Shown here: piece by piece, positions 26,009-52,737 of the stretch
Layout: each line of letters opens with the position of its first letter
How positions within the stretch are numbered: the first letter of the stretch is position 1
NCBI RefSeq assembly: GCF_900089605.1
Contig: NZ_LT594324.1
Coordinates: 6,262,001 to 6,326,000 of the forward strand
Direction of reading: 5' to 3'
From: Micromonospora narathiwatensis
GTDB taxonomy: Bacteria; Actinomycetota; Actinomycetes; Mycobacteriales; Micromonosporaceae
DNA length: 64,000 nucleotides
The notes under the pieces: model-generated
Told to the model about the DNA's origin: nothing
What the model saw: only the letters and a program-made list of their open reading frames with translations
Database searches by the model: none
Position numbers and translations under genes: made by a program

Positions 26009-26090
26009 CCCCGGCGATCTTGCAGTTGTGGTCCCCGTGAAAGGGGCACCAGGCCCCAAATCGGCGACCCGAACTGCAAGATCGCCGGGG
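26009..26090. repeat. long inverted repeat element, copy 1
   Basis: Perfect 19-bp arms (CCCCGGCGATCTTGCAGTT at 26009-26027 and its complement at 26072-26090) enclose 44 bp. The left flank is C-rich (from about 25988) and the right flank G-rich (to about 26125), and these flanks also pair imperfectly. Copies with the same core are at 51171-51248 and 52250-52328. It lies between convergent genes, so transcription termination is one possible effect. Confidence 0.9.
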
Positions 26091-26116
26091 TGGGGGCGGG
26101 GGTGGGGTGGGGTGGG

Positions 26117-26806
26117 TTAGGGGAGGGTGTGGGTGATTTTTTCGGAGGCTGTGCGGGAGTTGAGGCGGGACTCGTCGAGGTTGGCGCAGGGGACCAGGGT
26201 GGCGCCGGCCGTGAGCGGGGCGAGGAGCCAGTCGACCGGGTCCGGATGGCGTGTCACGTCGACCAGCAGGCGGTCGCCGAGGGTGAGGCAGAGCTCCGCG
26301 GCGCGGGCCTCCGCGCGGGCCAGCAGCTCCGCGTCCCCCTCGCCACCCTGGGGGTACGGGGTGAAGTGATCGCCGTGCCCGCGCACCGTCGAGACGAAGT
26401 CGGTGAACCCGGCCGGCACCTCGCGCATCGGCAGGGCGAACGGGTCGAGGGCGAGGGCGTAACGCTCGCCGGCCGACCAGGCCGCCGCCGCGTCGATCCC
26501 GCCGGCGGCGGCAAAGAGCACGTCCACGTCCCCTGGAACGTCGACCACGGTCAGCTTCGCCGACCAGCAGCCGAGCAGCACGGCGGCGGTCTGCCAGTGC
26601 GGGGGCAGCAGCGTGGCGGCCGTGTCGCCGGGGCCGAGGGCGGCCTCGTCGACCAGCATGTTGGCCGTCTTGGCCACCCAGTTCGCGAGCGTCGCGCCGG
26701 ACAGTTCGGTGCGCTCGCCGGTGGCGTCGTCGTACCAGGTCAGCAGGGGTCGGGTGGGGTCGGTCGCGATCGCGTCGGCGAAGACCCGGGCAATGTTGTC
26801 GGCCAT
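26117..26806 (-). CDS. TIGR03089 family protein (AMP-binding-like fragment fold)
   Basis: 229 residues. It resembles the N-terminal part of acyl-CoA synthetases (ARVFADAIATDPTRPLLTWYDD; GATLANWVAKTANMLVDEA; LGPGDTAATLLPPHWQTAAVLLG) but lacks the AMP-binding P-loop and the C-terminal domain, which is how the actinobacterial TIGR03089 proteins look. Function unknown. In M. tuberculosis (Rv3268) it lies in the same cell-envelope/F420 neighbourhood. Its stop codon (TAA) lies inside the G-rich flank of repeat copy 1. A leaderless promoter TATCGT lies 8 bases before the ATG. Confidence 0.82.
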   Translation of the reverse strand: MADNIARVFADAIATDPTRPLLTWYDDATGERTELSGATLANWVAKTANMLVDEAALGPGDTAATLLPPHWQTAAVLLGCWSAKLTVVDVPGDVDVLFAAAGGIDAAAAWSAGERYALALDPFALPMREVPAGFTDFVSTVRGHGDHFTPYPQGGEGDAELLARAEARAAELCLTLGDRLLVDVTRHPDPVDWLLAPLTAGATLVPCANLDESRLNSRTASEKITHTLP

Positions 26807-26814
26807 CGGCGCGA

Positions 26815-26820
26815 ACGATA
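26815..26820 (-). promoter_or_regulatory. -10-like TATCGT for the TIGR03089 gene
   Basis: Minus-strand TATCGT ends 8 bases before the ATG at 26806; no ribosome site is visible. Confidence 0.35.
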
Positions 26821-26956
26821 CGCGTCCCGGTGCCGTACTCGATGACAACGACAAGTCGGCGTACCGTCGGGTCGCAGTCAACGCCGGGACCCGGGCCCGG
26901 CGTAGGCTTGCCGACAGTGTTGTTCCCCACAGATCGACAGCCTGAGGAGTCGCCCC

Positions 26957-28102
26957 GTGACCGCCGGTCGCCCGCCCCGCGTGCTCATCGACGCCACGAG
27001 TGTCCCCGCCGACCGTGGCGGCGTCGGTAGATACGTCGATGGCCTGCTCGGCGCCCTCGGCCGGGTCTGCGGCTCCGGCGTGGACCTGGTCGTGGTGAGC
27101 CTCCGCACCGACCTGGAGCGCTACACCCGGATGCTGCCCGGGGCCGAGGTGATCCCCGCCCCGGCGGCGGTCGCGCACCGTCCGGCCCGGCTCGCCTGGG
27201 AGCAGACCGGCCTGCCGCTGCTCGCCCAGCAGGTGGGCGCGGAGGTGCTGCACTCACCCTTCTACACCTGCCCGCTGCGGGCCGGCTGCCCGGTGACGGT
27301 CACCGTGCACGACGCGACCTTCTTCACCGAGCCGGAGCACTACGACAAGTCGCGCCGGACGTTCTTCCGCAGCGCGATCAAGACGTCGCTGCGCCGCGCC
27401 GACCGGGTGATCGTGCCGAGCAAGGCCACCCGGGACGAGCTGATCCGCCTCCTGGACGCCGACCCGACCCGGATCGACGTGGCTTACCACGGGGTCGACC
27501 AGGCCGCCTTCCACGCCCCCGGCGAGGAGGAGAAGGCCCGGGTACGCGCCCGCCTCGGGCTGGGCAGCAGCAGCTACATCGCCTTCCTCGGGGCCAAGGA
27601 GCCGCGCAAGAACGTACCCAATCTGATCCGCGGCTGGGCCCGGGCGGTAGCCGACCGGGAGGACCCGCCGGCGCTGGTCATTGCCGGCGGCCAGGGGCAC
27701 GACGACGACATCGACCGCGCGGTGGCCGAGGTCCCGTCGCACCTGCGGCTGCTCCGCCCGGGTTACCTTCGCTACGCCGACCTGCCCGGCTTCCTCGGTG
27801 GCGCGCTGGTCGCCGCCTACCCGTCGTACGGCGAGGGTTTCGGCCTGCCGATCCTGGAGGCGATGGCGTGCGCGGCGCCGGTGTTGACCACGCCACGGCT
27901 CTCGTTGCCCGAGGTCGGCGGCGACGCGGTGGCGTACACCAGCGAGGCCCCGGACCAGATCGCCACCGACCTGGCCGCCCTGCTCGACGACGAGCAGCGC
28001 CGGCTCTCGCTGGCCAAGGCCGGTTTCGACCGGGCCAAGGAGTTCACCTGGGAGTCCAGCGCGGAGGTGCACATCGCCGCGTGGGGCCGGGCCCGGTCCT
28101 GA
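26957..28102 (+). CDS. GT4-type glycosyltransferase
   Basis: 381 residues from GTG 26957, with GAGGAG upstream and a TAGGCT -10 candidate at about 26904. It has the two Rossmann halves of GT-B enzymes: an N-terminal acceptor domain (LIDATSVPADRGGVGRYVDGL) and a C-terminal donor domain with FLGAKEPRKNVPNLIRGW and the GT4 E-x7-E motif in YGEGFGLPILEAMACAAPV. Enzymes of this kind transfer hexoses from nucleotide sugars to lipid or polysaccharide acceptors at the membrane face. The following gene makes GDP-mannose, so a mannosyltransferase for envelope glycans is plausible but unproven. It occupies the place of wbbL in mycobacterial order, though WbbL is a different (GT2) type. Confidence 0.85.
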   Translation: MTAGRPPRVLIDATSVPADRGGVGRYVDGLLGALGRVCGSGVDLVVVSLRTDLERYTRMLPGAEVIPAPAAVAHRPARLAWEQTGLPLLAQQVGAEVLHSPFYTCPLRAGCPVTVTVHDATFFTEPEHYDKSRRTFFRSAIKTSLRRADRVIVPSKATRDELIRLLDADPTRIDVAYHGVDQAAFHAPGEEEKARVRARLGLGSSSYIAFLGAKEPRKNVPNLIRGWARAVADREDPPALVIAGGQGHDDDIDRAVAEVPSHLRLLRPGYLRYADLPGFLGGALVAAYPSYGEGFGLPILEAMACAAPVLTTPRLSLPEVGGDAVAYTSEAPDQIATDLAALLDDEQRRLSLAKAGFDRAKEFTWESSAEVHIAAWGRARS

Positions 28103-28166
28103 GCGGGGCGTCCCGGGTACCGCCGACCCCCCGTCCCAAGGGGGACGGTTCGGGCATGATGTGCTG

Positions 28167-29258
28167 ATGTTCTACGCCGTCATTCCGGCAGGTGGCAGTG
28201 GCACACGGTTGTGGCCGCTGTCCCGGGCCGGCCATCCCAAGTTCCTCCACCCGTTGACCGGCACGCCGGCATCGCTGCTCCAGGCGACGGTGGACCGACT
28301 GTCACCGCTGACCACCCCCGAGCGGACGCTGGTGGTCACCGGTGCCGCGCACGTCGCGGCGGTGGCCCGGCAACTGACCGGCCTGCCGGAGGAGAACATC
28401 CTGGTCGAGCCGTCGCCGCGCGACTCGTGCGCGGCGATCGCGCTGGCCGCGGCGGTGATCGCGGAACGTGCCCCGGCAGCGGTGATGGGCTCGTTCGCGG
28501 CCGACCACCTGATCGGCGATCCGGCGCGCTGGGCCGAGACCGTACGCCAGGCGATCCGCGGCGCGGAACAAGGCTCGCTGATGACGGTGGGCATCACCCC
28601 GACCCGGCCGGAGACCGGCTACGGCTACCTGGAGACCGGCGAACCGACCGGCGACGGCCCGCTGCGCCCGGTGATCGAGTTCAAGGAGAAGCCGGCCGCC
28701 GAGGTGGCCGAGGGCTACGTCCGCTCCGGACGGCACCTCTGGAACGCCAGCATGTTCGTCTGGCGGGTGGACGTGTTCCTGGCCGAGCTGGCCCGGCAGC
28801 AGCCGGCCCTGCACGCGGGGATCACCGCGATCGCGGCGGCGTGGGGCACCCCCGAGCAGGATGACGTCCTCGGCACGGTCTGGCCGACCCTGCCGAAGAT
28901 CTCGGTGGACTACGCGGTGATGGAGGGGGCGGCGACCGCCGGCCGGGTGGCGACCGTTCCGGGCGACTTCGGCTGGAACGATGTCGGCGACTTCCACACC
29001 CTCGGCGAGGTGCTCCCCGCCGACGGGGCCGGCAACGTGGTGCTGGGCGCGGACGCCAAGCCGGGTGTGCTGCTGCGGGACAGCGCCGGCCTGGTGGTGG
29101 TGCCGCACTCGGGCCGGCTGGTGGCGGCCCTCGGCGTACGCGACCTGATCGTGGTGGACACCCCGGACGCGTTGCTGGTCTGCCCCCGCGAGCGGGCCCA
29201 GGACGTCAAGAAGCTGGTCGACGAACTCAAGGAGCGCGGCGAGGAGGGCCTGGTCTGA
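28167..29258 (+). CDS. manC: mannose-1-phosphate guanylyltransferase
   Basis: 363 residues. It makes GDP-mannose from mannose-1-phosphate and GTP. Nucleotidyltransferase motifs are VIPAGGSGTRLWPLSR near the N-terminus, LVEPSPRDSCAAIALAA, VMGSFAADHLI, the FKEKP signature, NASMFVWRVDVFL and GDFGWNDVGDFHTL. The usual PKQF is PKFLHP here. It lacks the C-terminal isomerase domain of bifunctional enzymes. ATG 28167 is chosen over GTG 28161. It matches the gene called manB/manC between wbbL and fbiB in mycobacteria (Rv3264c). A short hairpin (CCGTCCC ... GGGACGG) precedes it after the glycosyltransferase stop. Confidence 0.92.
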   Translation: MFYAVIPAGGSGTRLWPLSRAGHPKFLHPLTGTPASLLQATVDRLSPLTTPERTLVVTGAAHVAAVARQLTGLPEENILVEPSPRDSCAAIALAAAVIAERAPAAVMGSFAADHLIGDPARWAETVRQAIRGAEQGSLMTVGITPTRPETGYGYLETGEPTGDGPLRPVIEFKEKPAAEVAEGYVRSGRHLWNASMFVWRVDVFLAELARQQPALHAGITAIAAAWGTPEQDDVLGTVWPTLPKISVDYAVMEGAATAGRVATVPGDFGWNDVGDFHTLGEVLPADGAGNVVLGADAKPGVLLRDSAGLVVVPHSGRLVAALGVRDLIVVDTPDALLVCPRERAQDVKKLVDELKERGEEGLV

Positions 29259-29292
29259 CCGGGCCGCGTCGGCCGGTCCGTCGTGCCCCGGC

Positions 29293-29877
29293 TCAGCCGG
29301 CGGCGCGGCGGGCCAGGGCGGCGAGGGCCGGCGCGACGAGCTGTTCGGTGGCGTGAGCCAGCGGCTCGGGCAGCCGGTCAGGCGGGAACCAGCCCAGCGC
29401 CTCGGACTCGGCGCTGACCCGCTCGCTGGCCCCGGCCGGGGCGAGTACGGCGAACCGTACGTCGTAGTGCAGCGAGTCGCCCTGGCAGGCGACCGGGTGG
29501 ATGTCCACGTCGATCGGTTCCGGGTCGACGACCAGCCCGGCGATCCCGGACTCCTCGGTGGCCTCGCGCAGCGCGGCGGCGGCCAGGGCCCGGTCGCCGG
29601 GCTCGCAGTGCCCGCCGAGCTGCACCCACTTGCGGAACTTGCCGTGCAGGCAGAGCAGCACCCGCCGGCCGGTCGCGTCGAGCACCAGCGCGCTCGCGGT
29701 GACGTGCCCGGCGCGGTGGCCGCGACCCATCGCGACCGGCCCGGCGGTCAGTAGCTCCAGGGTTCGGTCCCGGGCCACGGCGGCGGCCGGGCTGGTCGGC
29801 GTCCAGCGGTTCAACAGCGCGGTGGCGTCGGCGTGCAGCTCGGCGTACGCCGGCAGGCCGGTGTGGGTGTCGGGCAC
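29293..29877 (-). CDS. Nudix hydrolase
   Basis: 194 residues from GTG 29877, with a minus-strand TAGAGT -10 ending 6 bases upstream (leaderless type). The Nudix box is present as GGHCEPGD ... LREATEESGI; compared with the canonical spacing it has one extra residue before REU and Asp in place of the first Glu, a variant I have seen in actinobacterial members. The catalytic REATEE core is intact. The fold hydrolyses nucleoside diphosphates linked to another group; the substrate is unknown. It converges with manC. Confidence 0.85.
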   Translation of the reverse strand: MPDTHTGLPAYAELHADATALLNRWTPTSPAAAVARDRTLELLTAGPVAMGRGHRAGHVTASALVLDATGRRVLLCLHGKFRKWVQLGGHCEPGDRALAAAALREATEESGIAGLVVDPEPIDVDIHPVACQGDSLHYDVRFAVLAPAGASERVSAESEALGWFPPDRLPEPLAHATEQLVAPALAALARRAAG

Positions 29878-30156
29878 TCCGACACTCTACGAGCGGGGTG
29901 GGACGACCGGATGGCACCTCTACGGCGAGTGCCGCAGACCCTCGTTGGTGTCGCCCGGCCGTCCGCGTCCCCCCGAACCCCCGTTCGCCCCGGCCCGGCC
30001 GTACGGCACACCGGACCCGACAGGCAACGGAAGTCTCGCCGACCGACCCGCTCGCCGTCGAGACCTTTCAGTCCACGCTTAAAGATGGAGATTAGTGCCG
30101 CCAGGTACAGTGCCAACGGTGGTGGGCGTTCCTGCCGTCCGCCCCAGGAGCGCACC

Positions 30157-31158
30157 ATGCTGAAGGTCATTTTCACGAGCGAGGACATCCTGCGGACCAG
30201 GGTGGCCCCAACCGCGGATCCGGTCTGGGAGCTGGTCCTCAGCCTGCACCTGCTTCAGGGCCGCCGGAATGAGCCGCTGCTGACCGAGTGGCGCCGCAGC
30301 ACGGCCCGCACCCTGCGGAAGGACAGCGCCGCCGAGCGGTTCCGCCTTCTCCTCGCCCTCAACCCGCCGCGCGGCTACTTCCCCGACTTCCTCACCCCGT
30401 ACGCCAGCCGGGAGGGTTTCCAGGCGGGGCTGGCGGCCGTCCGGGGCACCCCCGTCGACATGCTGCACCGGGACCTGACCCGGCTCGCCGAGGAGAACCG
30501 GCTGCCCACCCCGGCCGCCGCGCTGGCCCGGGGCGAGCCCGAGGCGCTGCGCCACCTCACCGACTCGATGGCCCGCTACCACTCGCTCGCCGTCACGCCG
30601 TACTGGCCTCGGATCCAGGCGGCGGTGGAGGCCGACCGGGCGCGGCGGGCACGGGCGATGCTCGACGGCGGGCCCGAGGGCCTGCTGGCGAGCCTCCGGC
30701 CCGGCATGCGGTACGCGGGCGGGGTGCTGGAGGTCCTGGACTACCCGGACAGCCGGGAACTGCACCTGGACGGCCGGGGCCTGCTGCTGGTCCCGTCGTT
30801 CTTCTGCGCGCCGACCCCGGTCGCTCTGCTCGACCCGACGCTGCCGCCGGTGCTGGTCTATCCCGTGGACCGGCTCGGTGGCCTCGTCCCGAGGACGGGG
30901 CCGGGCGCCGGGCGGAACCCGGACGGCACCCGCGAGGCCCTCGGTGCCCTGCTCGGCCGTACCCGCGCCGCCGTGCTGGAAGCCGCCGACGACGGTTGCA
31001 CCACCGGGGAGATGGCCCGCCGGCTGCGAATCTCCGCCGCCGCGGCCAGCCAGCACACCACCGTGCTGCGCAATGCCGGCCTGTTGGTCAGCCACCGGGA
31101 CCGCAACACCGTGCTGCACACCCTCACCCCCCTCGGCCGCGCGGTCCTCGACGCCTGA
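30157..31158 (+). CDS. ArsR-like winged-helix regulator with DUF5937-type N-terminal region
   Basis: 333 residues from ATG 30157 with CAGGAG 6 bases upstream. The last ~75 residues are a winged helix-turn-helix (GRTRAAVLEAADDGCTTGEMA; RLRISAAAASQHTTVLRNAG; LLVSHRDRNTVLHTLTPLG). The N-terminal ~230 residues (ILRTRVAPTADPVWELVLSL and on) match the ligand/dimerisation region often annotated DUF5937 in actinobacteria. It probably binds DNA as a dimer and may control itself or a distant target; no adjacent operon is obviously linked. The 279-bp upstream gap contains an AT-richer patch (CTTAAAGATGGAGATTAG) and a TACAGT -10 candidate. Confidence 0.8.
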   Translation: MLKVIFTSEDILRTRVAPTADPVWELVLSLHLLQGRRNEPLLTEWRRSTARTLRKDSAAERFRLLLALNPPRGYFPDFLTPYASREGFQAGLAAVRGTPVDMLHRDLTRLAEENRLPTPAAALARGEPEALRHLTDSMARYHSLAVTPYWPRIQAAVEADRARRARAMLDGGPEGLLASLRPGMRYAGGVLEVLDYPDSRELHLDGRGLLLVPSFFCAPTPVALLDPTLPPVLVYPVDRLGGLVPRTGPGAGRNPDGTREALGALLGRTRAAVLEAADDGCTTGEMARRLRISAAAASQHTTVLRNAGLLVSHRDRNTVLHTLTPLGRAVLDA

Positions 31159-31183
31159 CCACCGCCGGCGTGCCGAGAAAGGG

Positions 31184-32272
31184 TCAGACGGCCAGGGCGG
31201 CGCTCGCCGTGCTGCCGGCCGGTGGCGACAGCAGTGCCGAGGAGATGCCCTCGGCGGCCAGGGCGGTCCGCAGGCGTTGCAGGTCGGCGCCGAAACGCAC
31301 CAGATCCGCGGGGTCGACCGGGACCGGCGGGGTCCCGAGGACGAGCCCCCCGGCCGGCGCGGGCCAGCCGGGCACGGTGGCGATCAGGCCGGCGCGTACC
31401 GCCTCGTCGGTGACGTGGGTGAAGACCGTGCCGGGCGCCACCACCTCGGCGACCGCGGCGATCGCCCGGTCGACGGCGGCCGGGTCGGCCGGCGTCGGTC
31501 CCGGGCCGTCGGGCAGGACGGCGGCCTCCCGCAGCCCGACCGCCCTCGCCTCGGCGGTGCCGAGCGAGAACAGGTCCAGTTCGGCGTCGCGGATCAGCGC
31601 CCGTGCCCCCTGACCGTCGACGGCCCGCTCGACGCCCAGGTAGCCGCGGACGACGGCCACCGGCACCTGGTCGCACTTGCCCTTGATCAGCTCGGCGGCG
31701 CCGGCCAGCTCGTCCACCACCGCCATCTGGGTGAGCTGGAGCTCGTTGCCGTACGGGTCGATCTCGCCCCGGTGGTCGCGGATCGCCGGCATCCCGGCCA
31801 CCCCGAGCGCGACGTCGGTGAGCCCGTTGCGCCACGGCCGGCCCATGGTGTCGCTGACGATGACCGCGACGTCCAGGTGGTAGTGCTCGCGCAGCGCCGC
31901 CCGGAGCGCCTCGGCGGACCCGTCCGGGTCCGTCGGCAGCAGCACCAGTCGGGTCTTGTCCACGTTCGACGCGTCGATGCCGGCGGAGGCCATTACGAAG
32001 CCGTGGTGGGTCTGCACGATCCGGGTCGCCCCGCGGGTGGCCACCACCCGGGCGGTCTCCGCGGCGAGCATCTCGTCCCGGGCGGCCAGCCGCTCGGGCC
32101 CGTCGGCGGGCACGTCGACCAGCCGGCCCTCCGCCTTCGACACGATCTTGCTGGTCACCACCAGCACGTCGCCGTCGCGCAGCCACGGCGCCGCGGTGGC
32201 GATCAGCGCCGCCAGGTCGTCGCCCTCGGTCACGTCGCCGATGCCCAGCACCGGCAGGATCTCCAGCTTCAC
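31184..32272 (-). CDS. fbiB: coenzyme F420-0:L-glutamate ligase with shortened C-terminal domain
   Basis: 362 residues from GTG 32272, overlapping the fbiA stop by 4 bases (GTGA). The N-terminal ~245 residues are a full CofE-type ligase, which adds glutamates to F420-0 using GTP: LVVTSKIVSKAEGRLV, VVATRGATRIVQTHHGFVMA, GIDASNVDK, SDTMGRPWRNGLTDVALGVAG, IRDHRGEIDPYGNELQLTQMA, ADELIKGKCDQVPVAVVRG. Mycobacterial FbiB continues for ~200 residues as an FMN nitroreductase-like dehydro-F420 reductase. Here only ~115 residues follow, without the usual RRSVRRF start, although GADLQRLRTALAAEGISSAL resembles part of that fold. The reductase function may be lost or altered. Confidence 0.88.
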   Translation of the reverse strand: MKLEILPVLGIGDVTEGDDLAALIATAAPWLRDGDVLVVTSKIVSKAEGRLVDVPADGPERLAARDEMLAAETARVVATRGATRIVQTHHGFVMASAGIDASNVDKTRLVLLPTDPDGSAEALRAALREHYHLDVAVIVSDTMGRPWRNGLTDVALGVAGMPAIRDHRGEIDPYGNELQLTQMAVVDELAGAAELIKGKCDQVPVAVVRGYLGVERAVDGQGARALIRDAELDLFSLGTAEARAVGLREAAVLPDGPGPTPADPAAVDRAIAAVAEVVAPGTVFTHVTDEAVRAGLIATVPGWPAPAGGLVLGTPPVPVDPADLVRFGADLQRLRTALAAEGISSALLSPPAGSTASAALAV

Positions 32273-33216
32273 ATCAGCTCCAACGCGGCCCGGACCATCG
32301 CGGCCGTCGCCGCCTCGTCGGTCATCCGCAACGGTGCGGACCGTACGGTCACCTCCGGCACCAGCGTTCCCTCGTCCTCCGGCGCGACCAGCCAGCCGTC
32401 GAGCAGGCCACCGGCCGAGCGGCCACCGTAGAGGCCACCGACCCCGGCCGCGCTGCACTCCACGCCGAGCACGGCGAGGCAGCGGTCGGCCATGCCGCGT
32501 ACCGGGGCGCCGCCGATGATCGGGGACACGCCCACCACGGGGGCCGGCCCGTCGGTGACCGCGTCACGCAGCCCCGGCACGGCCAGGATCGGCGCGACGC
32601 TCACCACCGGGTTGCTCGGCGCGACCAGCACCACGTCGGCCGAGCCGATCGCCGCCAGCACGCCCGGCGCCGGTTTCGCCGTCTCCGCGCCGACGAAGAC
32701 GAACCGGTGCGTCGGGAGATCCGCCCGGTACCGCACCCACCACTCCTGGAAGTGGATCGCCCGCTGGCCGCCGTCCAGATCGACCACCACGTGCGTCTCC
32801 AGGCGGTCGTCGGTGGCCGGCAGCAGGCGTACGCCGGGCTGCCAGCGGGTGGCGAGCGCCTCGGTCACCTGGGACAGCGGATACCCGGCGTTGAGCATCG
32901 TCGTCCGGACCAGGTGGGTGGCGAGGTCCTTGTCGCCCAGACCGAACCAGCTCGGCTCGGCCCCGTACGCGGCCAGCTCCGACTTGACCGTCCAGCTCTC
33001 ACCGACCCGGCCCCAGCCCCGCTCCGGGTCGGCGCCGCCGCCCAGGGTGTACAGCACGCTGTCCAGGTCCGGGCACACCTTGAGCCCGTGCAGCAGCAGA
33101 TCGTCGCCGACGTTGACCACGGCGGTCACCTCGGCCCCCACCTCCCGGGCGTAGGCCCGGACGCCGAGCAGGAACCGGGCGCCCCCGATTCCGCCGGTCA
33201 GAACCACGATGCGCAT
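32269..33216 (-). CDS. fbiA: 2-phospho-L-lactate / phosphoenolpyruvate transferase
   Basis: 315 residues. FbiA joins the phospholactyl or enolpyruvyl moiety from its guanosine-diphosphate carrier to the deazaflavin FO, giving (dehydro-)F420-0. Motifs are VVLTGGIGGARFLLG, AVVNVGDDLLLHGLKVCPDLDS-like, FGLGDKDLATHL, and LVAPSNPVVSVAPIL near the C-terminal half, followed by VVGVSPIIGGAPVRGMAD. ATG 33216 is chosen because GGAAGG lies 9 bases upstream; ATG 33225 has no room for it. It is coupled to fbiB. Divergent from the membrane gene at 33317. Confidence 0.94.
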   Translation of the reverse strand: MRIVVLTGGIGGARFLLGVRAYAREVGAEVTAVVNVGDDLLLHGLKVCPDLDSVLYTLGGGADPERGWGRVGESWTVKSELAAYGAEPSWFGLGDKDLATHLVRTTMLNAGYPLSQVTEALATRWQPGVRLLPATDDRLETHVVVDLDGGQRAIHFQEWWVRYRADLPTHRFVFVGAETAKPAPGVLAAIGSADVVLVAPSNPVVSVAPILAVPGLRDAVTDGPAPVVGVSPIIGGAPVRGMADRCLAVLGVECSAAGVGGLYGGRSAGGLLDGWLVAPEDEGTLVPEVTVRSAPLRMTDEAATAAMVRAALELM

Positions 33217-33316
33217 GGTGTCCATCCTTCCGCACGCGCAGCCGTCGGTCGGCCGGTGGCCGGGGAGACTAGGCTCACGTCGGCAACTGTCCGCTTTCGT
33301 CCCCAAGGGGGAGTCC

Positions 33317-34455: not shown

Positions 34456-34461
34456 GAGTGG

Positions 34462-44508: not shown

Positions 44509-44513
44509 GAACG

Positions 44514-45668
44514 ATGGGACACGAGACACCGGCCGGCGACCTGCGCCTGGCCAACCTGACCAAGCGGTTCGGCGTCTTCACCGCGGTGGACGACCTCAGT
44601 CTGACCATCCCGCAGGGCTCGTTCTTCGCCCTGCTCGGGGCGTCCGGCTGCGGCAAGACCACCACCCTACGGATGATCGCCGGGCTGGAGGAGCCGACCA
44701 GCGGGCAGGTGCTGCTCGGTGACCGGGACATCGCCGGGCTGCGACCGTACAAGCGGCCGGTGAACACCGTGTTCCAGAGCTACGCGCTCTTCCCGCACCT
44801 CGACATCCACGAGAACGTGGCCTTCGGGCTGCGTCGGCGCGGCATCCGCAAGGTGACCGAACAGGTCGAGCAGATGCTCGCGCTGGTGCAACTCGAAGGC
44901 TACGGCCGCCGCAAGCCGGCCCAGCTCTCCGGCGGCCAGCAGCAGCGGGTCGCGCTGGCCCGCGCGTTGATCAACCACCCGCAGGTGCTGCTGCTGGACG
45001 AGCCGCTCGGCGCGCTCGACCTGAAGCTGCGCCGGCAGATGCAGATCGAGCTGAAGCGGATCCAGACGGAGGTCGGGATCACCTTCGTGCACGTCACCCA
45101 CGACCAGGAGGAGGCCATGACCATGGCCGACACCGTCGCGGTGATGAACGCGGGCCGGATCGAGCAGCTCGGCGCCCCCGCCGAGATCTACGAGTACCCG
45201 GCCAGCGCGTTCGTGGCGAACTTCCTGGGCCAGTCCAACCTGCTCGCGGGCGAGGCCGCCGGGCGTAGCGGGGACGAAGTGCTGGTCACCGCGCACGGCG
45301 CGCGCTTCTCGGTGCCCGCCGGCCGGGCCCGCGTCGAGCAGGGACCGGTCTTCCTCGGGGTACGCCCCGAGAAACTGCACCTGGTCGAGCACTCCGGCGC
45401 GGTCCCGGTCAACCACCAGCACATCGGCGGCGTCATCACCGACGCCTCCTACGTCGGCGTGAGCACGCAGTACCTGGTGCGGACGGCGTGGGGCAGCGAG
45501 TTGTCCGCGTTCGCCGCGAACAGTGGGGTCGACAGGTGGCTCCCGGTCGGCACGCCCGTGGTCGCGCACTGGGATCCCAGGCACGCCTTCCTGCTGCACC
45601 GCGAGGCCGGCGAGGACGACCAGACCACTCCGCTGCTCGACGAGCCGCCGGTGGGCGTGGCGTCATGA
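44514..45668 (+). CDS. potA: polyamine ABC transporter ATP-binding protein
   Basis: 384 residues. Walker A GASGCGKTT (43-51), signature LSGGQQQR, Walker B LLLDEPLGALD and the switch H in VHVTHDQEEAM are intact. The C-terminal TOBE domain (FLGVRPEKLHLV; ITDASYVGVSTQYLVRT) is typical of PotA. It energises the importer from the cytoplasm. ATG 44514 follows the potD stop by 5 bases; the stop overlaps the potB start as ATGA. Confidence 0.95.
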   Translation: MGHETPAGDLRLANLTKRFGVFTAVDDLSLTIPQGSFFALLGASGCGKTTTLRMIAGLEEPTSGQVLLGDRDIAGLRPYKRPVNTVFQSYALFPHLDIHENVAFGLRRRGIRKVTEQVEQMLALVQLEGYGRRKPAQLSGGQQQRVALARALINHPQVLLLDEPLGALDLKLRRQMQIELKRIQTEVGITFVHVTHDQEEAMTMADTVAVMNAGRIEQLGAPAEIYEYPASAFVANFLGQSNLLAGEAAGRSGDEVLVTAHGARFSVPAGRARVEQGPVFLGVRPEKLHLVEHSGAVPVNHQHIGGVITDASYVGVSTQYLVRTAWGSELSAFAANSGVDRWLPVGTPVVAHWDPRHAFLLHREAGEDDQTTPLLDEPPVGVAS

Positions 45669-46576
45669 CCGCCCTCGCTCACGTGCCGACCGGCTCGGGG
45701 CAGTCGGCCGCGCCGCCGGCGGCCCGCCGAGGGCGCTCCCGGCTGCTGCCGTACCTGCTGCTGCTCCCGGGCGCCGCCTGGCTGTTCGTCTTCTTCGCCC
45801 TGCCGCTGCTGCAACTCGCTGCGGCCAGCCTCTACGACCCGAGCGGATCACTGTCGACCGGGTACGCGATGACCTGGGCCTTCGGCAACTATCCGGAGGC
45901 GTTGCAGGCGTACTGGCCGCAGTTCGTCCGGTCGTTCGTCTACTCGGCGATCGCGCTGGTGCTGGCCCTGCTGATGGGCTACCCGCTGGCGTACGCGATC
46001 GCCCAGAAGGCCGGCCGCTGGAAGAACCTGCTGCTGGTCGCGGTGGTCGCGCCGATGTTCACCAGCTTCCTGGTCCGTACGCTGGCCTGGAAGACCATCC
46101 TGTCGGACAACGGCTGGGTGGTCGGTGTGCTACGCGACGTACACCTGCTCGGGCCGGACGGCCGGCTGCTGGCCACCCCGGTCGCGGTGGTGCTCGGCCT
46201 GACGTACAACTTCCTGCCCTTCCTGGTGCTGCCGCTGTACGCGAACCTGGAGCGGCTGGACCCCCGGCTGCTGGAGGCGGCGAGCGACCTGTACGCGAGC
46301 CCGCTGCGGGCGTTCCAGAAGGTCACCCTGCCGCTGTCGATGCCCGGGCTGATCGCCGGCACTCTGCTGTTCTTCATCCCGGCCACCGGTGACTACATCA
46401 ACGCCGAACTGCTCGGCACGCCGAACGAATACATGATCGGCAACGTCATCGACTCGGCGTTCCTGGTCCGGCTGGACTACCCGCAGGGCGCGGCCCTGTC
46501 GTTCCTGCTGATGGCGGCGATCCTCGCGATCGTCTTCGTCTATCTGCGCAAGGCCGGTACGGAGGAGGTCCTGTGA
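45665..46576 (+). CDS. potB: polyamine ABC transporter permease
   Basis: 303 residues, six transmembrane helices. The EAA loop that contacts PotA reads EAASDLYASPLRAFQKVTLP. Starts at the ATGA overlap with potA. Its TGA is overlapped by GTGA of the spacer repeat that separates it from potC. Confidence 0.94.
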   Translation: MTALAHVPTGSGQSAAPPAARRGRSRLLPYLLLLPGAAWLFVFFALPLLQLAAASLYDPSGSLSTGYAMTWAFGNYPEALQAYWPQFVRSFVYSAIALVLALLMGYPLAYAIAQKAGRWKNLLLVAVVAPMFTSFLVRTLAWKTILSDNGWVVGVLRDVHLLGPDGRLLATPVAVVLGLTYNFLPFLVLPLYANLERLDPRLLEAASDLYASPLRAFQKVTLPLSMPGLIAGTLLFFIPATGDYINAELLGTPNEYMIGNVIDSAFLVRLDYPQGAALSFLLMAAILAIVFVYLRKAGTEEVL

Positions 46577-46635
46577 GCGGGAGGAGTGCAGCGAAGCGGA
46601 GCCCCGCAGTCGCGAACGGAGGGCGGGCACTGTGA
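46573..46635 (+). repeat. stop-start spacer repeat, copy B (potB-potC junction)
   Basis: GTGAGCGGGAGGAGTGCAGC opens the element, overlapping the potB stop. GAGCCCCGCAGTCGCGAACG at 46599-46618 is identical to copy A at 14041-14060, followed by GGAGGGC. It contains a 20-codon frame (VSGRSAAKRSPAVANGGRAL) whose TGA overlaps the potC GTG, so stop-start overlaps exist at both ends. Confidence 0.85.
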
Positions 46636-47474
46636 GACTGTCCCGTTGGCTGGCCGACCGCTGGGTGATGGGCGCCGCCCTGCTGGTCCTCGGCTACCTG
46701 TCGCTGCCGATCCTGGTGGTCGCCGGGCTCTCCTTCAACCGGCCGGCGAGCAAGCTGTCCTACGACTTCAACGAGTTCACCCTGGACAACTGGAAGCAGC
46801 CCTGCGCCACCGCCGACATGTGCGACGCGGTGGGCCGGAGCATGCTGATCGGCCTGATCGCCACGTTGGTCGCCACCGTCCTCGGCACGCTGATGGCGTT
46901 CGCCCTGGTCCGGCACGGTTTCAAGGGCCGGGCCGGGATCAACGGGCTGATCTTCCTGCCGATGGCGACCCCGGAGCTGGTGATGGGCACCTCGCTGCTC
47001 GCCCTCTTCGTCGCGGCCGGGGTGCCGCAGGGCTTCTGGACCATCGTCATCGCGCACGTGATGTTCTGCGTGTCGTTCGTGGTGGTCACCGTGAAGGCCC
47101 GGCTCGCCGGCATGGACCGGCGGCTGGAGGAGGCCGCCATGGACCTGTACGCCAGCGAGTGGCAGACCTTCCGGCGGATCACCCTGCCCCTGGTGCTGCC
47201 CGGCATCCTGGCCGCCGCGCTGCTCTCCTTCTCGCTCAGCTTCGACGACTTCATCATCACGAACTTCAACGCCGGCACCACCGTCACCTTTCCGATGTAC
47301 GTCTGGGGCGCCGCCCAGCGGGGCATCCCGCCGCAGGTCAACGTCATCGGCACGGCGATGTTCGCGATCGCGCTGCTGCTCGTGGGGGCCAGCTCGTTGC
47401 AGGGCCGGCGGGCCCGACGCGCCGCCCTCGCGGCCACCGTCGCCGCCCGGCCGACGGCGAAGAGCGGATCATGA
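46632..47474 (+). CDS. potC: polyamine ABC transporter permease
   Basis: 280 residues from GTG 46632, six transmembrane helices, EAA loop EAAMDLYASEWQTFRRITLP followed by LVLPG. Its GTG overlaps the stop of the short frame in the spacer repeat, and its TGA overlaps the next start as ATGA. A Ser/Arg/Ala-rich tail of ~25 residues follows the last helix. Confidence 0.94.
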   Translation: MRLSRWLADRWVMGAALLVLGYLSLPILVVAGLSFNRPASKLSYDFNEFTLDNWKQPCATADMCDAVGRSMLIGLIATLVATVLGTLMAFALVRHGFKGRAGINGLIFLPMATPELVMGTSLLALFVAAGVPQGFWTIVIAHVMFCVSFVVVTVKARLAGMDRRLEEAAMDLYASEWQTFRRITLPLVLPGILAAALLSFSLSFDDFIITNFNAGTTVTFPMYVWGAAQRGIPPQVNVIGTAMFAIALLLVGASSLQGRRARRAALAATVAARPTAKSGS

Positions 47475-48892
47475 AACTCCCGCATACCGGCCGGGCGCTG
47501 GCCGACGCCGCGCCCGTCCCGTACTGGCTGGACCGACCGGAACGCCCCGACCCGCTGCCGCCGCTGACCGGTACGCACGAAGCCGACCTGCTGGTGGTCG
47601 GTGGCGGGTACTCGGGGCTCTGGACCGCGCTGCTGGCCAAGGCGGCCGAGCCCGACCGGGATGTGCTCCTGGTCGAGGCGGGCACCTGCGGCTGGGCGGC
47701 GTCCGGGCGTAACGGCGGGTTCTGCGCCGCCTCGCTCACCCACGGCCTGGCCAACGGCGTCGACCGGTTCCCCGGCGAGATCGACGAGTTGGAACGGCTC
47801 GGCCGGGAGAACCTGGACGCCATCGCCGCCACGATCGACCGGCACGGCATCGACTGCGACTTCGAGCGCACCGGCGAGCTGGCGGTGGCCGTCGAGCCGT
47901 ACCAGCTCGCCGGGCTCGCCGAGGACGCCGAGCTGGCCGGCCGGTACGGCCACGACGTGCGCCTGCTCGACCGGGACGAGGTACGCGCCGAGGTGGACTC
48001 ACCGACGTACCTCGGCGGGATGTGGGACCGGGACCGGGTGGCCCTGCTCGACCCGGCGAGGCTCGCCTGGGGGCTGCGCCGCGCCGCCCTCGACCTGGGC
48101 GTACGCCTGCACGAGCACACCCGGGTCACCGGCCTGCACCGCGACGGCACGGCGCTGCGGGCGGCCACCACCGGCGGCGCGGCGGCCACGCCCGGCAGCG
48201 TGCGAGCCCGGCGGGTGGTGCTCGGCACCAACGCGTTCCCGCCGCTGCTGCGCCGGCTGCGCGCCTGGCTGGTGCCGGTCTACGACTACGCGCTGATGAC
48301 CGAGCCGCTGTCGGAGGAGCAGCGCAAGGCCGTCGGCTGGGCGAACCGGCAGGGGCTGGCCGACCTCGGCAACCAGTTCCACTACTACCGGATCACCGCC
48401 GACGGCCGGATCCTCTTCGGCGGCTACGACGCGATCTACCACTACGGCAACCGGATGGCCCCCGAACTGGAGCAGCGGGAGGCCACCTTCACCGCCCTGG
48501 CTCGGCACTTCTTCACCACGTTCCCCCAGCTTGAGGGCCTTCGGTTCAGCCACCGGTGGGGTGGCGTCATCGACACCTGCACCCGGTTCTGCCCGTTCTT
48601 CGGCACCGCGTACGACGGAAGGCTGGCGTACGCGGCCGGGTTCACCGGGCTCGGCGTCGGGGCGACCCGGTTCGGCGCCCGGGTGATGCTCGACCTGCTC
48701 GGCGGTGAGCAGACCCCGCTGACCCGGCTCGACCTGGTACGCGGCAAACCGCTGCCGTTCCCGCCGGAGCCGTTCCGGGCCACCGGCATCAATCTCACCC
48801 GCTGGTCGCTGGCCCGCGCCGACGCGCGCGAGGGTCGGCGCAACCTGTGGCTGCGTACGCTCGATCGTTTTGGTTTGGGGTTCGATTCCTGA
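47471..48892 (+). CDS. FAD-dependent amine oxidoreductase (DAO family, PuuB-like)
   Basis: 473 residues. FAD motif LLVVGGGYSGLWTALLAKA, GWAASGRNGGFCAASLTHG, and C-terminal HRWGGVIDTCTRFCPFFG, YAAGFTGLGVGATRFGARV. In the gamma-glutamylputrescine route PuuB performs this oxidation, but no PuuA (glutamate-putrescine ligase) is visible in the window, so direct oxidation of putrescine, agmatine products or another amine is equally possible. Translationally coupled to potC, which argues that its substrate is what the transporter brings in. Confidence 0.88.
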   Translation: MKLPHTGRALADAAPVPYWLDRPERPDPLPPLTGTHEADLLVVGGGYSGLWTALLAKAAEPDRDVLLVEAGTCGWAASGRNGGFCAASLTHGLANGVDRFPGEIDELERLGRENLDAIAATIDRHGIDCDFERTGELAVAVEPYQLAGLAEDAELAGRYGHDVRLLDRDEVRAEVDSPTYLGGMWDRDRVALLDPARLAWGLRRAALDLGVRLHEHTRVTGLHRDGTALRAATTGGAAATPGSVRARRVVLGTNAFPPLLRRLRAWLVPVYDYALMTEPLSEEQRKAVGWANRQGLADLGNQFHYYRITADGRILFGGYDAIYHYGNRMAPELEQREATFTALARHFFTTFPQLEGLRFSHRWGGVIDTCTRFCPFFGTAYDGRLAYAAGFTGLGVGATRFGARVMLDLLGGEQTPLTRLDLVRGKPLPFPPEPFRATGINLTRWSLARADAREGRRNLWLRTLDRFGLGFDS

Positions 48893-50094
48893 TGCGTATC
48901 CTGCTCGTCGGCGCCGGCGGGGTCGGCTCCGCCGCCGTCGCCATCGCCGCCCGCCGTTCCTTCTTCGAGACCATGGTGGTCGCCGACCACGACCTCGGCC
49001 GCGCCGAGCGGGCCGTGGCCGGGCACGGTGACCGGTTCGTCGCCGCCGCGCTCGACGCCTCCACGGCGGACGCGGTCACCGCGCTCTGCCGCGAGCACCG
49101 GATCACCCACGTGCTCAACGCGGTCGACCCACGCTTCGTCATGCCGATCTTCGACGGCGCGTTCGCCGCCGGGGCCGACTACCTGGACATGGCGATGTCG
49201 CTGTCCCACCCGCACCCGACCGTGCCCTACGCGGAGACCGGCGTGAAGCTCGGCGACGACCAGTTCGCCGTTTCTGAACAGTGGTCCGCCGCCGGCCGCC
49301 TCGCGCTCTGCGGTGTCGGCGTCGAGCCCGGCCTCTCCGACGTCTTCGCCCGCTACGCCGCCGACGAACTCTTCGCCGAGATCGACGAAGTCGGGGTACG
49401 CGACGGCGCCAACCTCACCGTCGACGGCTACGACTTCGCCCCGTCGTTCTCCATCTGGACCACCATCGAGGAGTGCCTGAACCCGCCGGTGATCTGGGAG
49501 GCCGACCGGGGCTGGTACACCACCCCGCCGTTCTCCGAGCCGGAGGTCTTCGAGTTCCCGGCGGGGATCGGCCCGGTCGAGTGCGTCAACGTGGAGCACG
49601 AGGAGGTGCTGCTCATCCCGCGCTGGGTGAAGGCACGGCGGGTCACCTTCAAGTACGGCCTCGGCGACGAGTTCATCGAGGTGCTCAAGACCCTGCACAA
49701 GCTGGGCCTCGACTCGACCCGGCCGGTGCGCGTACGCGGCGTCGAGGTCTCCCCGCGCGACGTGGTGGCCGCCTGCCTGCCCGACCCGGCCACGCTCGGC
49801 GACCGGATGCGGGGCAAGACCTGCGCCGGCACGTACGTGACCGGCACCGGCGTCGACGGCCGGCCGCGGCGGGTCTACCTCTACCACGTGGTCGACAACG
49901 AGTGGTCGATGCGGGAGTACGGCCACCAGGCGGTGGTCTGGCAGACCGCCGTCAACCCGATCGTCGCGCTGGAGCTGCTGGCCACCGGCGCCTGGTCCGG
50001 CACCGGCGTGCTCGGCCCGGAGGCGCTGCCGCCGAGGCCCTTCCTCGACCTGCTGACCGGCTACGGCTCGCCGTGGGGGATGGAGGAGCGGTGA
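48892..50094 (+). CDS. saccharopine dehydrogenase-like NAD(P)-binding protein
   Basis: 400 residues. N-terminal Rossmann motif ILLVGAGGVGSAAVAIA, then VLNAVDPRFVMPIFDGAF, LDMAMSLSHPHP and GVGVEPGLSDVFARYAADEL, as in the saccharopine dehydrogenase / carboxynorspermidine dehydrogenase superfamily. These reductively join or oxidatively split an aldehyde-amine conjugate. In a polyamine operon, a carboxyspermidine- or aminoaldehyde-related reaction is attractive but unproven. Its ATG overlaps the preceding TGA (TGATG) and its stop overlaps the agmatinase GTG. Confidence 0.82.
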   Translation: MRILLVGAGGVGSAAVAIAARRSFFETMVVADHDLGRAERAVAGHGDRFVAAALDASTADAVTALCREHRITHVLNAVDPRFVMPIFDGAFAAGADYLDMAMSLSHPHPTVPYAETGVKLGDDQFAVSEQWSAAGRLALCGVGVEPGLSDVFARYAADELFAEIDEVGVRDGANLTVDGYDFAPSFSIWTTIEECLNPPVIWEADRGWYTTPPFSEPEVFEFPAGIGPVECVNVEHEEVLLIPRWVKARRVTFKYGLGDEFIEVLKTLHKLGLDSTRPVRVRGVEVSPRDVVAACLPDPATLGDRMRGKTCAGTYVTGTGVDGRPRRVYLYHVVDNEWSMREYGHQAVVWQTAVNPIVALELLATGAWSGTGVLGPEALPPRPFLDLLTGYGSPWGMEER

Positions 50095-51104
50095 CCCGCT
50101 ACGGTCCGATGTTCGGCCCCGACGTGACGTTCCTCGGGGTGCCGCCGTGCACCCTCGACGAGCCGGACACCTACGCGGACGCGGACGTGGTGATCGTCGG
50201 CGCGCCCTTCGACGGCGGCACCTCGCACCGGCCGGGCACCCGGTTCGGCCCGTCCGCCATCCGGCAGGCCTGCTACCTGCCGCACGACGGCTCCCGCCCG
50301 TCCCTGGCGCTGCGCGTGGACGGCCTGCGGGACCTGCGCGTCTACGACGCCGGCGACGTGGAGATGTTCTCCGGCGACATCGAACGGTCGCTGACCTCAC
50401 TGGAGACCGCCGTGCACGCGGTCGCGTCCGCCGGTGCGATCCCGATCGTCCTCGGCGGGGACCACTCCATCGCCCTGCCCGACGCCACCGGCGTGGCCCG
50501 CCACCATGGGCTCGGCCGGGTGTCGTTGGTGCACTTCGACGCGCACGCCGACACCGGTGACATCGAGTTCGGCTCGCTGCACGGGCACGGCCAGCCGATG
50601 CGCCGACTCATCGAGTCCGGCGCGGTACGCGGCGACCGCTTCCTCCAGATCGGTCTGCGCGGTTACTGGCCCGGCCCGGAGACCCTGACGTGGATGGCCG
50701 GGCAGCGGATGCGCTCGTACGAGATGACCGAGGTGGTGGCGCGCGGGCTCGACGAGTGCCTGACCGAGGCGTTCGGGATCGCGGTGGACGAGTGCGAGGG
50801 CGTGTTCCTCTCCGTCGACGTGGACGTGGTCGACCCGGGCATGGCCCCCGGCACCGGCACCCCGGAACCCGGCGGGCTGACCTCCCGGCAGCTCCTCGAC
50901 GCGGTCCGCCGCTGCTGCTACGAGCTGCCGATCGTCGGGGTGGACGTGGTCGAGGTGGCCCCGCCGTACGACCACGCCGACATCACCGCCTACCTCGGCA
51001 ACCGAGTGGTCCTGGAAGCCCTGTCCGCGATCGCCCGCCGCCGCCACGACGCCGCCGGCGCCCCACCCTGGAACCCCCACCAACCCCTCCTAGACGCCCG
51101 CTAA
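50091..51104 (+). CDS. speB: agmatinase / guanidino-acid ureohydrolase
   Basis: 337 residues from GTG 50091 (GTGA overlap with the previous gene). Binuclear manganese motifs of the ureohydrolase family are intact: GGDHSIAL, VHFDAHADTGD, and SVDVDVVDPGMAPGTGTPEPGG (in two parts). It hydrolyses agmatine to putrescine and urea, or a related guanidino compound such as 4-guanidinobutyrate. Last gene of the importer operon. The final residues (APPWNPHQPLLDAR) are encoded in the C-rich flank of repeat copy 2. Confidence 0.9.
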   Translation: MTRYGPMFGPDVTFLGVPPCTLDEPDTYADADVVIVGAPFDGGTSHRPGTRFGPSAIRQACYLPHDGSRPSLALRVDGLRDLRVYDAGDVEMFSGDIERSLTSLETAVHAVASAGAIPIVLGGDHSIALPDATGVARHHGLGRVSLVHFDAHADTGDIEFGSLHGHGQPMRRLIESGAVRGDRFLQIGLRGYWPGPETLTWMAGQRMRSYEMTEVVARGLDECLTEAFGIAVDECEGVFLSVDVDVVDPGMAPGTGTPEPGGLTSRQLLDAVRRCCYELPIVGVDVVEVAPPYDHADITAYLGNRVVLEALSAIARRRHDAAGAPPWNPHQPLLDAR

Positions 51105-51170
51105 CCCCTCCCCGCCCTCCCCGCCCACCCTCCCTCCCCTCCCTCCCTCCCCACCCTCCCCACCCCTATC

Positions 51171-51248
51171 CGCGCGATCTTGCAGTTAGTGTCCTGGCAT
51201 ACCGTCACTAATCGGGCATGTAGCCGGCGCCAACTGCAAGATCGCGCG
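51171..51248. repeat. long inverted repeat element, copy 2
   Basis: Perfect 17-bp arms (CGCGCGATCTTGCAGTT at 51171-51187, complement at 51232-51248) with a 44-bp interior. C-rich left flank (about 51106-51168: CCCTCCCTCCCCACCC type) and G-rich right flank (about 51249-51370). The interior sequence differs from copies 1 and 3. It follows the agmatinase operon and precedes the DUF559 gene. Confidence 0.9.
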
Positions 51249-51370
51249 CGGAGGGTGGGGGCTAGCACGGGGGAGGGGGTGGGGTGGGGTTGTCCACAGG
51301 GGAGGTTGTTGTCCACAGGGGGTGGGGGTGGTGGGGCGGGGGCAGGTGTTGCGGGGCGCAGGGTGGGGGG

Positions 51371-52219
51371 ATGTCTACCCAGTTGTGGCGGACCCGGGAA
51401 CTGATGCGCGTCCTGACCGTACGGCGGATCCGAACCCAGGTGGACCGCGAAGAACTCGTACGGGTGCGGCGGGGCGTCTACGCGCCGTACGTGTGCGACG
51501 ACGAGGACGAGCTGCGTGCCCTGCTGATGTGTCTGCCGGAGGGCGCCATGCTCGCGATGCAGAGCGCCGCCCGCCGTCACGGATTCGGCGTACTGCGCGA
51601 GGCGCTCGTACACGTCCAGCTCCCGCCGCAGATAGCCAAGCCCAGGCTCCCCGGTCTGGTCGTCCACCACTCGGTACTGCCGGCGCGTCCGGTGCTGATC
51701 GGTGGGCTGCCCTGCGTACCCGCCGCGCAGTGTGCCGTCGACCTGGCCCGTAGCGTTCGGCGGACGGACGCGCTGCCGGTGCTCGACGCCGCGCTCCGCT
51801 CGGGTGCCGTCACTCAGGACGACCTCCTGGTCGAGTTGGCCCTGCACCGGGCGCTGCGCGGTGTACGCCAAGCACGCGATCTGGTGCCGCGCGCGGATGG
51901 GCGCTCGGAGTGCCGCCAGGAGAGCCAGCTCAGGCTGCTCCTGCTCGACGCAGGGCTGCCGGTGCCCGAACCGCAGATGTGGGTGTACGACGAGTACGGC
52001 GTTCCACGCTTCCGCATCGATCTCGGGTACCGCGAACGGAGGGTCGGCATCGAGTACGACGGCCTGTCCCACCTTGACCGGGACCGGCTCCGCCATGATC
52101 GCGATCGGATCAACTGGTTGGACGCCAACGGCTGGCGGATGCGCTATTTCACCGACCGCGACCTCTACCGCCGCCCCTCCCACATCCTCACCACCATCCG
52201 AACCGCCCTAACCCCCTAA
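51371..52219 (+). CDS. AbiEi-like wHTH plus DUF559 (Vsr/PD-(D/E)xK-like) protein
   Basis: 282 residues from ATG 51371. The N-terminal ~60 residues (LTVRRIRTQVDREELVRVRR; GVYAPYV) resemble the winged-helix AbiEi-type antitoxin domain found at the start of many actinobacterial DUF559 proteins. The C-terminal ~95 residues form the DUF559 domain: ESQLRLLLLDAGLPVPEPQM, FRIDLGYRERRVGIEYDG, HDRDRINWLDANGWRMRYF. The RID ... EYDG pattern resembles a PD-(D/E)xK nuclease core. Function unknown. It stands alone, bracketed by repeat copies 2 and 3, and its stop overlaps the extended end of the convergent DUF779 gene by 4 bases. Confidence 0.82.
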   Translation: MSTQLWRTRELMRVLTVRRIRTQVDREELVRVRRGVYAPYVCDDEDELRALLMCLPEGAMLAMQSAARRHGFGVLREALVHVQLPPQIAKPRLPGLVVHHSVLPARPVLIGGLPCVPAAQCAVDLARSVRRTDALPVLDAALRSGAVTQDDLLVELALHRALRGVRQARDLVPRADGRSECRQESQLRLLLLDAGLPVPEPQMWVYDEYGVPRFRIDLGYRERRVGIEYDGLSHLDRDRLRHDRDRINWLDANGWRMRYFTDRDLYRRPSHILTTIRTALTP

Positions 52220-52737
52220 CCCCCCACCCCCACCCCCGCCCCCCACCCCCTCGGCGATCTTGCACTTCCTTGCGGTGCAGAAGGCGTAAATGCGACATCA
52301 AGGCGACCCAAAGTGCAAGATCGCCGAGGAGAGGGCGGGGAGGGTGGGGAGGGTGGGGAGGGTGGGTGGGGAGGGAGGGTGGGTGGGGAGGGTTGGGGGA
52401 GGTGGGAGCGGGTGAGGAAGCGGAGGCCCTCGGGGGCTTCCAGGGAGAAGCCGCTGCCACGCCCCGGCACCACGTCGACCGTCAGCCTCGTGTGCTTCCA
52501 CAGCTCCCACTGGGCGGCAGAGATCCAGAACTCCACGGGCTCGTCGACGCCGTCCACGGAGAGCGAGGCCAGCAGGACGTCGGAGGAGCCGGTGCGGAAC
52601 TCGCCGGCCGGGTAGCACATCGGGGCGCTGCCGTCGCAGCAGCCGCCGGACTGGTGGAACATGAGTGGGCCGTGCTGCCCCCGCAGCGACCGGATCAGCT
52701 CGGCCGCCGCGGGGGTGAGGGTCACCAGGTCGCCCAT
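52216..52737 (-). CDS. DUF779 protein with repeat-derived C-terminal extension
   Basis: 173 residues; the ATG overlaps the aldehyde dehydrogenase stop (TGATG). Residues 1-112 are a typical DUF779 protein (MFHQSGGCCDGSAPMCYPAG; WELWKHTRLTVDVVPGRG; GFSLEAPEGLRFLTR), a small cysteine-rich family nearly always paired with ExaC/AldB-type acetaldehyde dehydrogenases. Its role is unclear. Family members normally end near FLTR. Here the frame continues 60 residues through a G-rich tract (PPSPPSPPSP type) and the whole of inverted repeat copy 3, ending at a TAG overlapping the DUF559 stop. The extension looks like insertion-derived sequence. Confidence 0.85.
   Translation of the reverse strand: MGDLVTLTPAAAELIRSLRGQHGPLMFHQSGGCCDGSAPMCYPAGEFRTGSSDVLLASLSVDGVDEPVEFWISAAQWELWKHTRLTVDVVPGRGSGFSLEAPEGLRFLTRSHLPQPSPPTLPPHPPSPPSPPSPPSPRRSCTLGRLDVAFTPSAPQGSARSPRGWGAGVGVGG
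52250..52328. repeat. long inverted repeat element, copy 3
   Basis: Perfect 18-bp arms (CTCGGCGATCTTGCACTT at 52250-52267, complement at 52311-52328) with a 43-bp interior. The arm has C in place of G in the TTGCA[G/C]TT core, and the opposite arm carries the matching change, so pairing is preserved. GGCGACCC before the right arm is shared with copy 1. G-rich right flank of GGGTGGGGA units to about 52405. Confidence 0.9.

What the first reader, a model, noticed from the sequence alone, without database searches (positions are those of the whole stretch)
26009..52328. Family of three long inverted-repeat elements with polar C-rich and G-rich flanks
Copies at 26009-26090, 51171-51248 and 52250-52328 share arms with the core CGATCTTGCA[G/C]TT, 17-19 bp perfect pairing and interiors of 44, 44 and 43 bp that differ between copies. 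The core change in copy 3 is compensated in the opposite arm. Every copy has a C-rich left flank and a G-rich right flank that can extend the stem. Conserved arms with variable interiors and compensatory change suggest selection on structure (RNA or cruciform) or a transposing palindrome (REP- or MITE-like). I do not know this family by name.
Basis: seen in the sequence. Interest (0 to 1): 0.8.

Follow-up and report, generated by a model that had tools for sequence, protein, structure and literature searches.

The report
Palindromic repeats paired with own nuclease
Short DNA palindromes scattered between genes of Micromonospora belong to a set of repeat families, and members of each family bracket the gene for a matching DNA-cutting-enzyme-like protein, which points to a repeat-plus-enzyme partnership like the known bacterial REP repeats but with an unrelated enzyme.

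Summary
The three inverted repeats are real and belong to a dispersed family: 17 exact copies in the window's own genome, 93 of 151 Micromonospora-genus genomes positive, and further copies in Dactylosporangium and Virgisporangium. The unexpected part lies between window copies 2 and 3. The gene there (51371-52219) encodes a DUF559 protein: an AbiEi-like DNA-binding part fused to a Vsr/homing-endonuclease-like nuclease part with its catalytic residues kept. In 30 orthologues the same element lies 8-157 bp after the stop in 30 and 118-177 bp before the start in 28. More distant DUF559 paralogues are bracketed by other palindrome families with their own arms: 25 of 63 loci not picked for their elements show matching arms on both sides, against 0 of 829 genes in control stretches. 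Protein similarity predicts arm similarity, and genomes with the orthologue hold more elements (median 36 against 0). Most likely this is a REPIN/RAYT-like system built on an unrelated nuclease. Mobilisation itself was not seen: the losses that could be aligned look like deletions. My paper searches found no description of this pairing.

The parts
26009..26090 (.). Copy 1: GATCTTGCAGTT arms (core 26016-26083, 68 bp) plus outer stem, between convergent genes
   Evidence: in 27 of 30 fetched orthologous sites an element with GATC-WTG arms was found
51171..51248 (.). Copy 2: core 51176-51243 (68 bp), about 127 bp before the start of the DUF559 gene (5' bracket)
51371..52219 (+). Gene for a 282-aa DUF559/MTES_1575 protein: AbiEi-like N-terminal part (residues 1-176) and Vsr/EDxHD-type nuclease domain (about 180-282)
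52250..52328 (.). Copy 3: core 52256-52322 (67 bp), 36 bp after the stop of the DUF559 gene (3' bracket)

Best explanation
The palindromes are REPIN-like repeats that depend on a cognate trans-acting protein. The protein is the DUF559 protein of the window: an AbiEi-like winged-helix part would bind the two inverted arms, and a Vsr/EDxHD-type nuclease domain would nick or cut the element, probably in hairpin or cruciform form, so that repair copies it to new intergenic places. The copy 118-177 bp before the gene probably also serves as its operator, as AbiEi proteins bind inverted repeats in their own promoters. Each DUF559 paralogue has its own palindrome family. Once placed behind genes, mostly convergent ones, copies are kept for long times as paired stems and may act as 3'-end or termination hairpins. 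Shown here: the family, the bracketing, the match between protein clade and arm sequence, the genome-level association, the intact nuclease motif and the pairing. Inferred: binding, cutting and mobilisation.
Against: No insertion with a clean empty site or target duplication was seen; of 12 absence alignments two show half an element left, one site is a clean loss of the intergenic stretch, and several could not be aligned. Conservation is mostly vertical. 38 of 63 paralogue loci do not show matching arms on both sides, and 16 of 63 show no inverted repeat at the threshold used. Twelve genomes hold 20 or more copies without the orthologue. In Virgisporangium aliadipatigenens and Sphaerimonospora no bracketed DUF559 was found among the loci fetched. 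Interiors of own-genome copies are no more than 65% alike. The 30 orthologues inherit one ancestral arrangement and are not independent. Binding, cutting and movement are untested.
Confidence: 0.7

Rival explanations
1. The palindromes are operator or binding sites of the AbiEi-DUF559 protein, which acts as a dispersed regulator, nucleoid or termination factor; the sites arose by selection and vertical descent and were never mobile. The nuclease part serves another role, such as defence or repair.
For: AbiEi proteins bind 23-bp inverted repeats in their own promoters and bend DNA (PMC7319586, abstract and passages). Conserved 5' spacing, helical-repeat-like motif spacing in the interior, mostly vertical conservation.
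Against: Near-identical interiors with unrelated flanks in Dactylosporangium, copy numbers from 0 to 84 within one genus, a second bracket behind the stop codon, and nuclease residues kept in 65 proteins.
Confidence: 0.2
2. They are ordinary bidirectional transcription terminators at convergent gene ends whose arms happen to be shared.
For: 65 of 112 classifiable copies lie between convergent genes, about 40 bp from each stop; stable hairpins; paired outer stem.
Against: Arms fixed in sequence over genera; conserved asymmetric interior; no T-run, the right flank is G-rich; 40 tandem and 7 divergent copies; family-specific bracketing of DUF559 genes. Termination as a side role is not excluded.
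Confidence: 0.07
3. DUF559 genes are only favoured neighbours: the palindromes are spread by an unrelated transposase and happen to settle beside these genes.
For: No movement by the DUF559 protein has been shown; some element-rich genomes lack the orthologue.
Against: The neighbouring family changes with the protein clade; the same family sits on both sides; genomes without any DUF559 hit hold at most 4 copies. A search for other transposases was not made.
Confidence: 0.03

Closest known systems
REP/REPIN repeats with RAYT (TnpA-REP) tyrosine transposases
   Same: Extragenic palindromes in inverted pairs with a less conserved spacer of near-fixed length; compensatory changes; the gene is bracketed by the repeats, often close to the stop codon; gene and repeat co-vary; more repeats in genomes with the gene (passages of PMC2817692; PMC3116915; PMC8049555).
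   Different: The enzyme is a Vsr/EDxHD-type nuclease with an AbiEi-like part, not a tyrosine (Y1) transposase; no GTAG tag; the arms pair with each other over about 25 bp; several families per genome; actinobacteria.
CGTC-tagged REPs
   Same: Palindromic, behind genes, many families; said to lack a dedicated transposase (PMC3733652, abstract and passages).
   Different: 20-40 bp with an unpaired CGTC tag at one end and a short tail. Here the outer CSKY-type bases are paired and the element is 48-70 bp. Whether CGTC repeats sit beside DUF559 genes was not tested.
AbiEi antitoxins of type IV toxin-antitoxin systems
   Different: Fused to a nuclease domain; a second palindrome behind the gene and dispersed copies in the genome. 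A neighbouring AbiEii toxin was not looked for.
Vsr mismatch endonuclease and EDxHD homing endonucleases (I-Bth0305I)
   Different: Carries an AbiEi-like part and is bracketed by its own palindrome family; not seen inside an intron in the loci studied.

Membership tests
REP/REPIN-RAYT | Dispersed extragenic inverted pairs able to form a hairpin | tested here: met
REP/REPIN-RAYT | Dedicated gene bracketed by the repeats | tested here: met
   for a different kind of gene
REP/REPIN-RAYT | That gene encodes a tyrosine (Y1, IS200/IS605-like) transposase | tested here: not met
   DUF559/Vsr-type nuclease and AbiEi-like part. No genome search for Y1 transposases was made
REP/REPIN-RAYT | GTAG-type tag at the foot of the palindrome | tested here: not met
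   bases -1 to -4 are mostly C, G/T/C, C/G, C and are paired
REP/REPIN-RAYT | Mobilisation in trans | not testable with these tools
   only indirect:
MITE | Target-site duplication and a parental autonomous transposon | tested here: inconclusive
   no clean empty site or duplication among 12 alignments; no search for a parent transposon
Intrinsic terminator | GC-rich hairpin followed by a T-run | tested here: not met
   hairpin present, right flanks G-rich without a T-run
AbiEi antitoxin | AbiEi fold or profile | tested here: met
   for the N-terminal part only
AbiEi antitoxin | Cognate AbiEii toxin gene next door | not tested
   neighbours in the window are arginase-family and DUF779 genes; not examined elsewhere
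Vsr/EDxHD nuclease | Nuclease fold and catalytic residues | tested here: met
CGTC REPs | Unpaired CGTC tag at one end | tested here: not met
   the outer bases are paired above shuffles

The most novel reading that the evidence does not exclude
A new class of mobile repeat: palindromes spread by AbiEi-Vsr (DUF559) nucleases rather than by any transposase or recombinase, with many protein-palindrome pairs evolving their own recognition sequences side by side in one genome, across actinobacteria, and perhaps behind REPs elsewhere that have no known transposase, such as the CGTC type.
Probability: 0.4. Interest if true: 0.95.

Novelty: new variant of a known kind. Interest (0 to 1): 0.85.

Why it matters
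REP-like repeats are common in bacteria and how they spread is poorly understood; the one known partner is a tyrosine transposase. If a nuclease of an unrelated fold partners palindromes in the same way, repeat-plus-domesticated-enzyme systems arose more than once, a large family of proteins listed as 'unknown function' gets a testable role, and the arms beside each gene give a predicted recognition sequence for each nuclease, many of them in a single genome.

Tried and rejected
RNA family: no Rfam match in the window at gathering scores. One-stranded RNA element: the interior's orientation shows no sense bias beside tandem genes (17 sense, 18 antisense, 5 unclear). Interior as a conserved hairpin: covariation was found only for outer dyad positions such as 17-51 and 19-49, and pairing deeper in is at or below shuffles at most positions. 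Pairing within one orthologous site (27 of 30 loci usable): above shuffles at -1 and -5 only (3 and 6 of 1000 shuffles), weak elsewhere. Recent movement among G021, G019 and G076: not shown. A DUF559 gene between the two Dactylosporangium roseum copies of L067: not there, the gene between is LacI-like by its sequence (name recalled, not searched). (PF18741 over 118 genomes of the class): many top hits are in much larger proteins; of 30 loci only six held a DUF559-type protein by my profile, three of them with a 5' inverted repeat and none with matching ones on both sides. PDB sequence search: no hit. NCBIfam: no hit. An RNA covariance model was not built. One search used a wrong reading frame and was replaced.

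Absence from print rests on searches (arm letters), 27, 28, 48, 51, 79, 80, 97 and 98, over open-licence PubMed Central papers only. Of papers I saw: passages of PMC2817692, PMC3733652, PMC12907096, PMC12306157, PMC8049555; abstract, outline and passages of PMC7319586 and PMC3116915; the rest only as search listings.

Full report
Observation. Their 9-nt core occurs six times in the window, all in these copies, against 0.13 expected, and they fold far better than shuffles. The own genome (6.61 Mb, one contig) holds 17 exact copies of the pattern GATCTTGCASTT-N30..60-AASTGCAAGATC and none of the reversed control. In the genus sample 93 of 151 genomes hold at least one, up to 84; 0 of 16 genomes of other families in the same order do.

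Anatomy. In 140 copies from the loci, lengths are 65-71 bp except two of 83-84. After orientation the interior shows a GRCAWA-like motif about every 9-10 bp. The 'G or C' position pairs in 117 of 175 copies, 90 expected. Outside the GATC, positions -1, -2, -3 and -5 pair far above shuffles (153, 105, 129 and 101 of 177; z about 7) although their letters differ between copies. Related copies enter this count more than once, so z is not a probability. Within one orthologous site the excess is clear at -1 and -5 only. The stem is therefore kept paired over about 25 bp, and the deeper interior is not a conserved hairpin.

Position. With a simple gene caller of my own, 65 of 112 copies with two called neighbours lie between convergent genes, 40 beside tandem genes and 7 between divergent ones; 7 more lie inside a called frame and 21 had a neighbour missing. 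Adjacent gene pairs in the same loci are convergent in 161 of 661. Median distances to the stops are about 40 bp. The interior's orientation is unrelated to tandem gene direction (17 to 18).

Descent. At the orthologous site of copy 1, 27 of 30 fetched species have an element with GATC-WTG arms, in some species GATCATG-type instead of GATCTTG-type. Over 400 kb of three relatives, elements of six arm types keep the same type at the same place in 91 of 129 comparisons; 28 are absent and 10 show another type; pairs are counted in both directions. For the window's family it is 39 same and 7 absent. The absences that could be read look like deletions or half elements, and none is a clean empty site. 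In Dactylosporangium, copies with unrelated flanks reach 93% interior identity, which is what copying would leave; in the own genome the most alike pair is 65%.

The association. In 30 orthologues from the genus, the element stands 8-157 bp behind the stop in 30 and 118-177 bp before the start in 28; L424 has too little upstream sequence and L291 truly lacks the 5' copy. These are orthologues, so this is one old arrangement kept, not 30 events. The stronger test is in paralogues: of 67 DUF559 loci with a usable hit (74 fetched), 28 have inverted repeats with the same arm on both sides; leaving out four regions that I had picked for their elements, 25 of 63, and 47 of 63 have at least one inverted repeat. 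In three 400-kb stretches, 0 of 829 genes have matching palindromes, 3 have inverted repeats on both sides and 76 on at least one. About eleven arm sequences are involved (my reading). Proteins 70-85% alike share arms in 95% of 61 pairs, proteins 30-40% alike in 5% of 517.

Genome level. Across 151 genomes, the 39 with the close orthologue hold 2-84 copies (median 36), the 112 without hold 0-54 (median 0); 14 genomes with no DUF559 hit hold at most 4. This is not corrected for phylogeny; several of the 14 are small genomes that look like one clade (Salinispora-like by size, my guess). Twelve genomes without the orthologue still hold 20 or more copies, which fits loss of the gene after spread but is not proof.

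Predictions. If the pairing is real, other genera with such elements should bracket their closest DUF559 gene with them. In D. sucinum, V. aurantiacum and V. ochraceum they do, with GATCTTGCAGTTGTGG arms; in D. roseum the bracket has GATCATGCA arms. In V. aliadipatigenens and Sphaerimonospora, whose best hits are only 39% and 35%, no bracketing was found among the fetched loci. In another family of the order, the palindrome beside a DUF559 gene is itself dispersed: 5 copies in that genome, 0 in five others.

Reading. The layout is that of REPINs and RAYTs (passages), but the enzyme is of another fold, so this is not a member of that family; it probably works like one. AbiEi proteins bind inverted repeats before their own genes, which suggests how the arms are recognised and that the 5' copy also serves control. 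Binding, cutting and copying are inference. The rival closest in strength is a dispersed binding-site system without movement. My searches found no paper that links DUF559 proteins with palindromic repeats; they cover open-licence papers only.

Noticed in passing
window 52216-52737 (-), DUF779 gene: The reading frame runs on through copy 3; in several relatives (L167-L169) a stop appears near 52400 where the window has TTG, so the window's stop seems lost.
   Followed up: partly
L192, L195: A different palindrome family (GAGCGTGATACCTCTGAG arms) before the DUF779 gene of two other species.
   Followed up: no
G000:C1:4970085-4971197 (L320): A second DUF559 gene of the own genome, with only an unrelated 3' inverted repeat at the threshold used.
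   Followed up: partly
G107, G047, G134, G063: DUF559 genes that look broken: split in two hits, or one TGA inside.
   Followed up: no
G000 whole genome: None of the 17 exact copies lies between 1.28 and 4.04 Mb of the contig; not tested against chance.
   Followed up: no
L395 and D. roseum loci: The bracket of the DUF559 gene has GATCATGCA arms while dispersed copies in the same record have GATCTTGCA arms.
   Followed up: no
G019:C1:1727790: An element of the GATCAAGG type whose relatives in G021 and G076 show only one arm in the corresponding stretch, apparently decayed.
   Followed up: no
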